Source: an uncultured Flammeovirgaceae bacterium (GTDB taxonomy: Bacteria > Bacteroidota > Bacteroidia > Cytophagales > Cyclobacteriaceae). Taken from it: a DNA stretch of 64,000 bases. The position numbers and the translations under genes are program-made. The notes beneath the pieces are model-generated. The model was not told the origin of the DNA. It searched no databases and was given only the letters and a program-made list of their open reading frames with translations. Positions 14,337 to 20,766 of this stretch are shown piece after piece (the first letter of the stretch is position 1; each line of letters begins with the position of its first letter). Location: positions 1 to 64,000 of the forward strand of contig CAKZYJ010000470.1 in NCBI GenBank assembly GCA_937884755.1. Reading direction: 5' to 3'.

Positions 14337-16043
14337 ATGATCCGATCTCGCGCTCAGGAATCCCGTGCTGCTATTGAGAAGTTATACATCACCATGCGGC
14401 ATCTGTTTATCCGGGGAAGCTATAAGCCGCTGGGGGTTTCCGGAGAATCGCTTATTCAGGCTTTGCACGTTCTTCAACCCGAAATCTACGGCTTGATTCT
14501 GGACCCCGAACGGGTAGAACTAAACGGCTTACTGTACGTACTGGATCGTCTGCCACGGGGTATTGAAGAGTGCCGTTATGTAAAACTCATTTCTCGTGAG
14601 GGCTACGAACATTCCAGTTTCGAAAATATTATTCCGGCCAAGCGGAGGCGGAACTGCTACCGGGTAGATGAATTACAGATGTACGTAGAAATGACGCGGG
14701 GCCGCAGCGATATCTACGATATTCTGACTCATTTGACATTCCTTTACAATGAAGCCGAGAAAATTCGTCGTAACGCGCTGGACCATAAAGGGAGGGAAAC
14801 CCCGGATTGGGTGAGGCTTCGGGAGCTGGTAGAGCAGGAGGCTCGGGAAGAAGATTGCGATTTGGAAGCAGCCTACTCTTACCTATCCAATGTACTCAGC
14901 CGTACTTACGAAGAAACCCGGCAGGCCTACCAGCAGTTTGCGGTAGACCCCACTCGTCACAGCCTTTTCCATATAGTCTACTATCTAGGAAAACTATCCA
15001 TAGAGGAGGCCCAAGGAAAGGGTGACCGTGAGATTAAATTTTCTAACACCCTACGTGAGCGGATAGGCCACCACGTATACGGCGAACTTTGGGCGAATAA
15101 TATTAAATCTATTCTGGAAGAAAAGAGACTGATTACCCGTCCGGTACATATCATCAGTGCTAATCTGCACAGTTTCGTCAACATTGTCTATGGCTACCAT
15201 GCGCTGGGAAGGTCGAGTTACGCAGAGATTGAGAAGCTGGCAGTAGAGATTAGTCAACAAAAGAAAACCCAACTTTTTAAGAAAATCCATGATTTTGCCT
15301 TGCAGCACGGCCTTACCGAAGTAGTTGATCAATCGGGTACCAATATCTCCATTCAGATTGTTGATACCGCCCAGTTACCTGGTGACTCTGTAGCTCCTGA
15401 TATTCCCAAACTCTCTGAGGATGAGGGGCAATCTCCCGTTTTGCTAATTATGGATTATGCTTTTGGCGAGCAGGCCTACGAGTGCATGGACGAATTATTG
15501 AAACCCTACGACGAGGAGAACGGTAGCTATCCGCTCAAAATAGAGTCCATCTCCATTATGGGTAAAGCCGGAATTTTGGAAGGAAACAAGGGCGACATTA
15601 TGATTCCTACGGCCCATGTGTTTGAAGGTACTGCCGATAACTATCCTTTAGACAACCAACTAGATGCCGATGCACTACGAGGTCACGGGTTGGAAGTATG
15701 TGTGGGGCCGATGATCACTGTACTGGGAACATCCTTGCAGAACAAAGATGTGCTCCGCTATTTTCTGAAATCCTCCTGGCAAGCTATTGGGTTAGAAATG
15801 GAAGGAGCTCATTACCAAAAAGCCATTCAGGCGGCAGCCAAAATCCGGAATAGTATTAACCCTAATGTTAAACTTCGGTACGCTTACTACGCCTCAGATA
15901 ATCCATTGGAAACCGGTAGCACCCTCGCCTCGGGCAGCTTAGGTCTAGAAGGAGTAAAACCTACCTATTTGATTGCTTTTAACATTCTCCGGCAAATTTT
16001 TTCAGCAAAAAAAGTGGAGCGGTTAGAAAGAGTTAATTCTTAG
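14337..16043 (+). CDS. DUF6909-like protein; C-terminal half resembles the nucleoside phosphorylase/nucleosidase superfamily
   Basis: C-terminal motifs SISIMGKAGILEGNKGDIMIPTAHVFEGT and AIGLEMEGAHYQKAIQAAA…YYASDNPLETGS. Confidence 0.6.
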   Translation: MIRSRAQESRAAIEKLYITMRHLFIRGSYKPLGVSGESLIQALHVLQPEIYGLILDPERVELNGLLYVLDRLPRGIEECRYVKLISREGYEHSSFENIIPAKRRRNCYRVDELQMYVEMTRGRSDIYDILTHLTFLYNEAEKIRRNALDHKGRETPDWVRLRELVEQEAREEDCDLEAAYSYLSNVLSRTYEETRQAYQQFAVDPTRHSLFHIVYYLGKLSIEEAQGKGDREIKFSNTLRERIGHHVYGELWANNIKSILEEKRLITRPVHIISANLHSFVNIVYGYHALGRSSYAEIEKLAVEISQQKKTQLFKKIHDFALQHGLTEVVDQSGTNISIQIVDTAQLPGDSVAPDIPKLSEDEGQSPVLLIMDYAFGEQAYECMDELLKPYDEENGSYPLKIESISIMGKAGILEGNKGDIMIPTAHVFEGTADNYPLDNQLDADALRGHGLEVCVGPMITVLGTSLQNKDVLRYFLKSSWQAIGLEMEGAHYQKAIQAAAKIRNSINPNVKLRYAYYASDNPLETGSTLASGSLGLEGVKPTYLIAFNILRQIFSAKKVERLERVNS

Positions 16044-16196: not shown

Positions 16197-17201
16197 ATGA
16201 AAGACGTTTCAAATCCCATTACAGAAATGGATGAACAGGAGTATGAGCAGTGGCAGCGCTCAATTCCGGCCCAGGTATTTCTGAACTATTTCTATGCGCT
16301 TAAACAACACATTACCGTTGCCGCGGAAGCGTATAATCTGAATAAAATAAATAATTTTCAGCAGTTAGAAGTTACGCTTACTGATAATGAAAAGGAATCA
16401 CTGAAGCGACATCTACTGAATAGCTGGAATACTGAATACACCATTCGGCAGACCGCTGCTTTGGGCGATATTGACTATCAGCAACACGCGCTCTACTGGA
16501 CATTCCCGAATGCCTTCTAGAGTGTTGAGGAATGTTTATTGGCATTGCGACTTGGTCAGCAGAATTGTTACCGTACCCGCGCCCGAGTTCTTCCGGAAGC
16601 TGGTCGGCTGGTGAAGCAAAAGTTCTATCCTGCGCCCTTATCATTTTACGCTTTCGGTGGGGCTCATCATCCTTCAATCTATGGGTTACCCAACGGTCGG
16701 TGGTCTAAACCGGCTTTAACATTAGCCCAAGATGAGCGGGAATCTCAGAGCCAGTTACGGCAGTTTTTGCGCACCACGCACCGACAGCGATCACAGCAGG
16801 TAAGAACCCGTGTGCAGAGTAATCCGCAAATTGCCTTGCGTAGTGAGCGCAGTGGTGACATACTCCGACGGTTTACCCGCGAACATTGGCAGAAGTTAGC
16901 CTGGCGAACTGGCTACACTACGGTGTTTCACTTACTACAAAGGTTAGTCGTCTCGGCTTCCAATCGGGAAATAGAGCGTTTCGTAGTTGCTGACATCGAT
17001 ACTCAGTTATTTCACGAGTCTTTACTCGAAGTGATTAGCTATATCAACTTTGTGCACGAAGCCTACGTAGCGCAGGCGGTTGGCCTGGAAACCTACGAAC
17101 ATTGGTTGGCTGACCTTCCGGTTTACCTTCAGCGTAGCTTCCTCACCAAGCGTTATAGAGTCCATATTTCACCGGTGCTTACGCAGGAAACCGCCGCTTG
17201 A
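16197..17201 (+). pseudogene. Uncharacterised ~333-codon ORF interrupted by one in-frame TAG (16518-16520)
   Basis: ORFs 16197-16520 and 16539-17201 share a frame; codons 16521-16538 read SVEECL with no further stop until 17201. Confidence 0.7.
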
Positions 17202-17319: not shown

Positions 17320-20300
17320 ATGAGAAAAAATAGTAGACCATTTAATCCAAAATCATTTCAACTTTTATGTATATCGGCACTTTCATTCCTGATAGTGCTC
17401 AGCGGTTGTAAGAGCGAGGAACCGGTAGACCTGCGAATTAAGCAATTACCGCCGGAGCAAGTAGCGGAATTAACTAAGTCTATTGAAGCTTCGGTAAGTC
17501 CAGAGTTGGCTGAAGGACTTACCCTAAGTCTGTGGGCGATAGATTCGCTGGTAAACGATCCTATTGCCATTGACATCGATAATCAGGGTAGGGTTTATTA
17601 TACCCGCACCGCACGAGGATTAAACTCAGAATTTGATATTCGGGCGCATCAAGATTGGGAGATTCAATCTATCCAATTACAGCACGTAGATGATCGTAAG
17701 GAGTTTCTGCGTAAAACCCTATCGCCGGAGAATAGCAGTCAAAACGAGTGGCTGGAAGATTTAAACGAAGATGGTTCTCACGACTGGATGGATCTTACCT
17801 TGGAAAAAGAAAAAATATACCGGGTAGAAGATGCTTCAGGCGATGGTCTGGCCGATCGTGCCCAATTGGTGATTGAAGACTTCAATCGCGAATTCGATGA
17901 TGTACTTGGTGCGGTGTTGGTAGAGGGTGATGATCTCTACGCCGGAGTTGCTCCCGATTTGTGGAGGATCATAGATGAAAACGGCGACGGCATTGCCGAT
18001 GAAAAAACCTCTATCTCGCACGGTTACGGGGTACACGTTGGCTTTGGTGGTCACGGAATGTCCGGCCTGGAAATGGGACCTGATGGCCGTATTTACTGGG
18101 GCATTGGCGACATTGGTTTCCACGGAACCGACTCTGACGGAAAAGAGTGGAAGTACCCCAACCGTGGAGTGCTGGTGCGGGCCAATCCCGACGGTAGTGA
18201 CTTTGAAGTGTTCGCCATGGGTCTTCGTAATACCCACGAATTCACCTTTGATAAGTACGGAAATATTATCGGGCAGGATAATGATGGCGATCATCGGGGT
18301 GAGAGCGAACGGTTGGTATATATCGTAAACGGTTCGGATACTGGTTGGCGCATTAACTGGCAGTTTGGTAAGTACAAAGATCCCAAGAATAACGAATACA
18401 AAGTATGGATGGATGAGGGGATGTACAAACCCCGGTTTGAAGGACAAGCCGCTTACATTACGCCCTGTATCATCAACTACGTGAATGGCCCTACCGGCTT
18501 TCTTTACAATCCCGGTACAGCTCTGGGACCAAAGTGGAAAGACTATTTCTTTGTGGCTAGTTTCGTAGGGAATCCGTCACGTTCCGGTATTCACGCTTTT
18601 AAGCTCAATCCTGAGGGCGCGAGTTTCAAATTAGGCGAAACCGAACAAATCATGGGTGGAGTGTTAGCTACGGGAATGGATTTTGGCCCGGATGGAGCCA
18701 TGTACATGGGTGACTGGATTGATGGCTGGATTCCTAAGAACGAAGGCCGAATCTGGAAACTGGATGCCCCTAGTGGCACTGACTGGCCGGAGCGTAAGCA
18801 GACCCAAACTTTATTAGCGGAAGATTTTACCGAGCGAGACGATAATGCTTTGGGCGAACTATTGAAGAACCTCGACATGCGGGTGCGGCAGAAAGCTCAA
18901 TTTGAATTGGCGAAGCGAGGTGAAGATGGTGCCGAGGTGTTTCGGCAGATGGTAGCTCAAACCGAGCACCAATTAGCTCGGGTGCATAGCATCTGGGGGC
19001 TAAGTCAGCTAGCCCGGCAGGAAGAAACCTACGCGGAAAGCCTGATGCCTCTGCTAAAGGATGCCGACCCGGAAATTCGGGCCCAAGCGGCTAAGTGGCT
19101 GGGCGATACTCGTTATGCATCAGCCGCCGAGGCCTTAGTACCAATGTTGAAGGATGGTTATTCCCGCGCCCGCTTCTTTGCCGCCGAAGCTCTAGGGCGT
19201 ATTGCCTACGAACCGGCTGTTCAACCTCTGATCGACCTGCTGGAAGCCAACAACGATGAAGATGCGTACCTGCGTCATGCCGCAAGTCTGGCTTTAGCCC
19301 GGATTGGTAAAACTGAGCCAGTCGTAGCACTGTCGAGTCACCCTTCTCGGGCGGTGCGAATTGGAGCCGTTGTCGCGCTTCGCCGTATGGAAGAACCAGG
19401 GATAGCTAAGTTCTTAGATGATGAAGATGAGTATATCGTGACGGAAGCCGCTCGGGCTATCAACGATGATTACTCCATTGAAGATGCTCTTCCAGCATTG
19501 GGTGATGTCTTAAAAGATAGCCGGTTTACCAACGAAGCCTTGGTGCGACGAGCTATTAATGCAAACCTACGGGTTGGTAGCGATGAAGCTTTACAAAACT
19601 TATTAGATTTTGCTTTAGGTCAAAGCAATCCAGAAGCGCTTAGAGCCGAAGCAGTGGCTGCCTTAGGAACCTGGGCTGAACCTTCAGTTTTGGATCGGGT
19701 AGACGGTCGTTATCGGGGTGAAATAAAGCGTGACCCCGCGAAAATTCAAGATGCTGCTTCTCAACCGCTTATCCGATTGACATCTCAATCTGCACCCGTC
19801 GTGCGATTAGAAGCTACGAAAGCCATTGGACGGTTAGGCTTTTCCAAAGGAGCACCTCAATTGCTGGCTGGACTGAAGACTGATGGGAATCCCGAAGTAC
19901 GGGCCGAAGCACTGAAGGCATTGGTTGCGCTGGATTATGATCAAATAGGTAATGCAGTGGAGATCGCACTAGCAGATAAAGAAAAGAGTGTGAGGGTAGT
20001 TGGTTTGGATTTAATGAAGCAAATGGATATTTCTCAGGATTTGATGGTATCATTACTGACGGAGGTAATCGATACGAAAACGGCCGAAGAAAAGCAGGCG
20101 GCAATGTTGACCCTCGGAACACTTCCCGTTGAGCAAACCAAAAATACCTTTGAAAATTTACTGACTAAATTAGAAGATGGTGGCCTTCCTCCTGAGGTCC
20201 ATCTAGAATTGACGGAAGCTATCGATAGTACTAAGGCCGAAGATCTGATTGCCCGATTGGAGAAAATCCAGGCTAACTCAACCGATGCTGAATCAGCGTT

Positions 20301-20766
20301 ATATTTGGATTGCCTATACGGCGGAGATCCCGAGCAGGGTGCAAGGCTAGTTTTCCGTCACTCCACTGCTCAGTGTATGAAGTGTCACGCCTACGATGAC
20401 TACGGAGGAAATGCTGGACCACGCTTGAACGGAATCGCTGATAAGCTCACGAGAGAACAAATTCTGGAAGCATTGATTAACCCAAGTGCACGTATTGCGC
20501 CGGGCTATGGAGTGGTTACGCTGGAGCTAGAAGATGGCAAAACCGTTAGTGGTATCTTGCAAGAAGAAAACGATACTGAGGTCGTACTGAAAGTAGGAAA
20601 TCAACCCGAAAGTGTGATTGAAAAGTCACAGATTGTGAAGCGTACTTCGGCTCCTTCCAGTATGCCCAATATGACGAACTATCTGACCAAAAAAGAGATA
20701 CGAAATATTGTGAGCTTTTTAAGTACCCTACACGGTGATGAAATGCAGGCTAGTGCCGCCGAATAG
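17320..20766 (+). CDS. PVC-type heme-binding protein: dehydrogenase-like beta-propeller, HEAT repeats and C-terminal cytochrome c
   Basis: Lipoprotein signal (LSFLIVLSGC), propeller motifs (GLEMGPDGRIYWGIGDIGFHG, MGLRNTHEFTFDKYGNI), HEAT-like repeats, CMKCH near C-terminus. Confidence 0.88.
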   Translation: MRKNSRPFNPKSFQLLCISALSFLIVLSGCKSEEPVDLRIKQLPPEQVAELTKSIEASVSPELAEGLTLSLWAIDSLVNDPIAIDIDNQGRVYYTRTARGLNSEFDIRAHQDWEIQSIQLQHVDDRKEFLRKTLSPENSSQNEWLEDLNEDGSHDWMDLTLEKEKIYRVEDASGDGLADRAQLVIEDFNREFDDVLGAVLVEGDDLYAGVAPDLWRIIDENGDGIADEKTSISHGYGVHVGFGGHGMSGLEMGPDGRIYWGIGDIGFHGTDSDGKEWKYPNRGVLVRANPDGSDFEVFAMGLRNTHEFTFDKYGNIIGQDNDGDHRGESERLVYIVNGSDTGWRINWQFGKYKDPKNNEYKVWMDEGMYKPRFEGQAAYITPCIINYVNGPTGFLYNPGTALGPKWKDYFFVASFVGNPSRSGIHAFKLNPEGASFKLGETEQIMGGVLATGMDFGPDGAMYMGDWIDGWIPKNEGRIWKLDAPSGTDWPERKQTQTLLAEDFTERDDNALGELLKNLDMRVRQKAQFELAKRGEDGAEVFRQMVAQTEHQLARVHSIWGLSQLARQEETYAESLMPLLKDADPEIRAQAAKWLGDTRYASAAEALVPMLKDGYSRARFFAAEALGRIAYEPAVQPLIDLLEANNDEDAYLRHAASLALARIGKTEPVVALSSHPSRAVRIGAVVALRRMEEPGIAKFLDDEDEYIVTEAARAINDDYSIEDALPALGDVLKDSRFTNEALVRRAINANLRVGSDEALQNLLDFALGQSNPEALRAEAVAALGTWAEPSVLDRVDGRYRGEIKRDPAKIQDAASQPLIRLTSQSAPVVRLEATKAIGRLGFSKGAPQLLAGLKTDGNPEVRAEALKALVALDYDQIGNAVEIALADKEKSVRVVGLDLMKQMDISQDLMVSLLTEVIDTKTAEEKQAAMLTLGTLPVEQTKNTFENLLTKLEDGGLPPEVHLELTEAIDSTKAEDLIARLEKIQANSTDAESALYLDCLYGGDPEQGARLVFRHSTAQCMKCHAYDDYGGNAGPRLNGIADKLTREQILEALINPSARIAPGYGVVTLELEDGKTVSGILQEENDTEVVLKVGNQPESVIEKSQIVKRTSAPSSMPNMTNYLTKKEIRNIVSFLSTLHGDEMQASAAE

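What the first reader, a model, noticed from the sequence alone, without database searches (positions are those of the whole stretch)
16197..17201. Uncharacterised ORF split by exactly one in-frame TAG, with coding character kept on both sides
ATG at 16197 leads to TAG at 16518-16520. The same frame continues (SVEECLLALRLGQQNCYRTRARVLPEAG…) with no other stop until 17201. The ORF-track start of the second part (TTG 16539) lies inside this frame, so it is not an independent gene with its own ATG. No frameshift or other lesion is visible, so this is a very recent nonsense mutation, an assembly error, or programmed readthrough. I recognised no family for either part, and it sits directly downstream of a nucleosidase-like gene.
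Basis: seen in the sequence. Interest (0 to 1): 0.62.

Follow-up and report, generated by a model that had tools for sequence, protein, structure and literature searches.

The report
Ordinary gene broken by one stop
A gene that related bacteria carry whole is cut in this one genome by a single stop codon; this looks like a broken gene or a sequence error, not a special way of reading the code.

Summary
An ATG at 16197 opens a frame closed by TAG at 16518-16520, and the same frame stays open to the TGA at 17199-17201. All 54 orthologues aligned here are single uninterrupted proteins. They carry Tyr (28) or His (26) where the window has TAG. In the two congeners with the gene (71-72% identity over the second part) the codon is TAT, so one substitution gives the stop. 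The gene is single copy and belongs to a mostly helical family without a Pfam or NCBIfam name.

Readthrough is unsupported: TAG ends about a third of long genes, no CUA tRNA or PylS was found, and no unusual RNA structure follows the stop. Separate translation of the second part is weakly supported: it has no Met codon, and the stop falls inside a confidently predicted helix. All three departures from strictly invariant residues lie within 8 residues of the stop, so the lesion is a local damaged patch. The same assembly has other genes broken by single stops, including housekeeping ones (L-serine dehydratase by TGA, an NrfD/ActC-like subunit by TAG). I conclude an ordinary interrupted gene: true pseudogene (about 50%) or consensus error (about 40%). 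Reads would decide.

The parts
16197..16520 (+). First part of the interrupted gene (107 aa plus TAG), corresponding to residues 1-107 of a 333-aa protein in the congeners
16518..16520 (+). In-frame TAG at a position that is Tyr or His in all 54 aligned orthologues
16494..16520 (+). Local damaged patch, codons 100-108: His, Gln and Tyr that are invariant in 54/54 orthologues are changed to Tyr, Asn and Phe, followed by the stop
16521..17201 (+). Second part of the same gene (226 codons plus TGA); no Met codon, first possible alternative start TTG 16539
14337..16043 (+). Upstream neighbour, DUF6909 (nucleosidase-like), in the same position in both congeners that have the gene
17320..20766 (+). 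Downstream neighbour, DUF7133/HEAT/cytochrome c protein; adjacent in one congener (L015), about 3.6 kb further on in the other (L016)

Best explanation
A single-copy gene for a protein of about 333 residues, mostly helical, has been disabled in this lineage by a substitution in a Tyr codon, giving TAG at codon 108. Translation ends there and yields at most a 107-residue fragment that stops in the middle of a conserved helix. The second part is not translated to any useful extent. Shown: orthology, the single frame in relatives, the residue at the stop, the clustered departures beside it. Inferred: that the lesion is real in the organism and that the fragment has no function.
For: Orthologues are uninterrupted: of the full-length matches in 292 genomes of the order only the window's has a stop well inside the protein; the stop flagged in G037 is its terminal stop, and the G128 and G169 frames (L085, L086) are open at full length when read out. 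Tyr/His at the position in 54/54. Neighbouring genes shared with both congeners that have the gene, single copy in this genome. The stop lies in helix 92-120 of the model of an intact congener protein, block pLDDT 91-95 around it. No Met codon in the second part. TAG ends 139 of 449 long coding frames sampled. Invariant residues H100, Q105 and Y107 are also changed, clustered beside the stop (0.6% of random triples are this close), and the first part is further diverged than expected from the congener pair (dN 0.32-0.34 against 0.14).
Against: The second part keeps every strictly invariant residue and its dN ratio (about 1.6) is like that of the HEAT-protein control, so no general decay is visible. 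The congeners are too distant (synonymous sites near saturation) to date the lesion. Other single-stop breaks in housekeeping genes of the same assembly make a consensus error almost as likely.
Confidence: 0.5

Rival explanations
1. The TAG is a consensus error in a draft assembly; the organism's gene is intact.
For: The assembly is a draft of 528 contigs with 3.74% contamination. In about 0.68 Mb sampled, a simple screen found other genes broken by single in-frame stops, including a single-copy L-serine dehydratase (TGA at a Cys codon; 490-491-aa open frames in three congeners) and a single-copy NrfD/ActC-like membrane subunit (TAG at a Leu codon with a Gly to Val change beside it; 481-aa frames in two congeners). 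Different stops at different residues in housekeeping genes are what random consensus errors would give. Clustered departures at invariant residues fit a poorly supported stretch.
Against: Five substitutions at conserved codons within 27 bases are many for random error; the reading frame is kept throughout; no reads available.
Confidence: 0.4
2. Gene fission: the two parts are translated separately, the second from TTG 16539 (preceded by GAGGA) or another non-ATG start.
For: Second part keeps all strictly invariant residues. GAGGA lies a few bases before TTG 16539 in the window, where the congener L003 reads GAAGAA and then CTG CGG.
Against: No Met codon in 226 residues; the break falls inside a helix; no aligned relative is split this way.
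Confidence: 0.05
3. Programmed readthrough or recoding of TAG, giving the full-length protein.
For: The downstream frame is open and conserved.
Against: No relative has a stop there; TAG is a common normal stop; no CUA tRNA among the tRNAs found or in a directed pattern search; no PylS; downstream RNA folds no better than shuffles, z = +1.0; TAG replaces different residues in different broken genes. The tRNA list is incomplete, so absence is not absolute.
Confidence: 0.04

Closest known systems
Nonsense-interrupted pseudogene (bacterial, single substitution)
   Same: One orthologous frame, one stop, intact copies in relatives, no paralogue in the genome
   Different: Departures at invariant residues cluster beside the stop instead of being spread over the gene
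Uncharacterised protein family of the order, mostly about 325-376 aa (no Pfam, NCBIfam or PADLOC name found)
   Same: The window gene is the positional orthologue of the two congener genes and retains 19 of 22 strictly invariant residues
   Different: Only member seen with a stop codon well inside the protein
HEPN-like helical domains (lead only)
   Same: Very weak fold matches among many others (3o10, 1ufb; E above 3)
   Different: No significant fold or sequence match; membership not claimed

Membership tests
Nonsense pseudogene | Orthologues are single uninterrupted genes with a sense codon at the stop | tested here: met
Nonsense pseudogene | No intact second copy in the genome | tested here: met
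Nonsense pseudogene | Relaxed constraint after the lesion | tested here: inconclusive
   Local cluster of departures beside the stop, but none elsewhere at strictly invariant sites; synonymous sites near saturation
Nonsense pseudogene | Stop present in the reads or in the living organism | not testable with these tools
   No reads held
TAG readthrough or recoding | Stop conserved at the position in relatives | tested here: not met
   0 of 54 orthologues
TAG readthrough or recoding | Suppressor tRNA (CUA) or pyrrolysine machinery | tested here: not met
   the tRNA list is incomplete
TAG readthrough or recoding | Stimulating RNA structure downstream | tested here: not met
   z = +1.0
Gene fission | Second part has its own start in a plausible context | tested here: inconclusive
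   No ATG; only alternative start codons, TTG 16539 the first

The most novel reading that the evidence does not exclude
The two parts are both translated, by low-level readthrough or a TTG restart, and act together as a split protein with an altered H-x4-Q-x-Y motif at the join.
Probability: 0.05. Interest if true: 0.4.

Novelty: new member of a known kind. Interest (0 to 1): 0.12.

Why it matters
It matters little beyond annotation. The gene should be listed as interrupted or of uncertain sequence, not as two genes and not as a readthrough case. The similar breaks in housekeeping genes suggest that in-frame stops in this assembly need read support before biological claims are made. The intact family, common in parts of the order and unnamed, with invariant H-x4-Q-x-Y and N-x2-HE motifs, may be worth characterising by itself.

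Tried and rejected
Family naming: Pfam, NCBIfam, PADLOC and PDB sequence searches gave nothing above cut-off; the DUF4127 hint for the first part (E 0.001, 18 bits against a 27-bit cut-off) was dropped. Fold search with a poor model (pLDDT 63) and a good one (pLDDT 87) gave no match at E below 0.001; the top rows are long helical bundles, including pore-forming toxin components, with TM about 0.2 or less, and mean nothing. Selenocysteine as a cause of the TGA in serine dehydratase: no SelA above cut-off. CUA tRNA candidates from a pattern search: the one shared by two contig ends is tRNA-Arg(TCT) across a 55-base overlap. One literature search on readthrough and in-frame stops in Bacteroidetes listed nothing specific to this case.

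Full report
Observation. The frame from ATG 16197 is closed by TAG at 16518-16520 and stays open again until TGA 17199-17201. The genome holds one copy. The window lies in a draft of 8.35 Mb in 528 contigs, 97.8% complete, 3.7% contaminated.

One gene, not two. Both parts match consecutive stretches of a single protein in the relatives found. The two congeners that have the gene (G003, G002) carry it as 333-aa frames in the same gene neighbourhood, behind the DUF6909 gene; a third congener shows no match. In 292 genomes of the order, 80 have a match; of the full-length ones only the window's has a stop well inside the protein. The TGA flagged in G037 is its terminal stop, and the frames of G128 and G169 are open at full length when read out (L085, L086). 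One relative (G122, L093) appears frameshifted instead, and a few genomes hold partial extra copies.

What replaces the TAG. Among 54 orthologues the position is Tyr in 28 and His in 26; both congeners have TAT. The stop therefore needs one substitution. Beside it, three residues that are invariant in 54 of 54 orthologues are changed: H100 to Y, Q105 to N, Y107 to F. No other of the 22 strictly invariant residues is changed. Three departures so close together occur in 0.6% of random triples of these positions. This is a local patch of damage, which either a complex local mutation or a poorly supported stretch of consensus could give; general decay after loss of function would be spread wider.

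Constraint. Nonsynonymous distances to the congeners are 0.32-0.34 for the first part and 0.20 for the second, against 0.14 and 0.13 between the congeners. The ratio for the second part (about 1.6) is like that of the downstream HEAT protein (about 1.7); the first part is faster (about 2.4). Synonymous sites are near saturation, so the lesion cannot be dated.

Structure. A model of an intact congener protein from 39 orthologues is confident (pLDDT 86.7, pTM 0.86) and mostly helical. Residue 108 lies within helix 92-120. A 107-residue product would end inside that helix and lack two thirds of the protein. No named family or solved structure matches.

Readthrough and restart. TAG ends 139 of 449 long coding frames in the sample (TAA 237, TGA 73). 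No CUA tRNA was found among the tRNAs detected or by a directed pattern, no PylS, and the RNA after the stop is not unusually structured. The tRNA list lacks several expected species, so this is evidence, not proof. The second part has no Met codon; a TTG at 16539 preceded by GAGGA is the only notable restart site.

Background of broken genes. In about 0.68 Mb of the genome, a crude screen found other single in-frame stops inside genes: L-serine dehydratase (L097:6020-6022, TGA at a Cys codon, single copy, intact in three congeners), an NrfD/ActC-like subunit (L137:3585-3587, TAG at a Leu codon with Gly to Val beside it, single copy, open in two congeners, cut short in the match of a third), and probably an integrase (L139:197-199, TAG). 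The name ActC rests on my own knowledge; the Pfam match is NrfD. Different stops at different residues argue against reassignment and for ordinary nonsense lesions or consensus errors. That housekeeping genes are hit raises the share of consensus errors.

Verdict. An ordinary gene interrupted by one stop. A true pseudogene is put at about 50%, a consensus error at about 40%, fission at 5%, readthrough at 4%.

Noticed in passing
L097:5405-6976 (G000:C512): Single-copy L-serine dehydratase gene broken by an in-frame TGA at a Cys codon shared by three congeners; no SelA above cut-off in the genome.
   Followed up: partly
L137:2361-3794 (G000:C367): NrfD/ActC-like membrane subunit broken by an in-frame TAG, with a Gly to Val change directly before it; two congeners have 481-aa open frames.
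   Followed up: partly
L139:2-829 (G000:C430): Phage-integrase-like gene (Arm and SAM-like domains) with an in-frame TAG after its SAM-like domain.
   Followed up: no
L142 start and L152 end (G000:C10 and C397): Two contigs share a 55-base end overlap inside a tRNA-Arg(TCT) gene, so they are probably neighbours; suggests a k-mer assembly with k about 55.
   Followed up: yes
L093:472-1631 (G122): An orthologue in another genome of the order appears split by a frameshift.
   Followed up: no
alignment A2 (39 orthologues): Unnamed protein family common in parts of the order, with invariant H-x4-Q-x-Y and N-x2-HE motifs and a confident helical model without a solved relative.
   Followed up: partly
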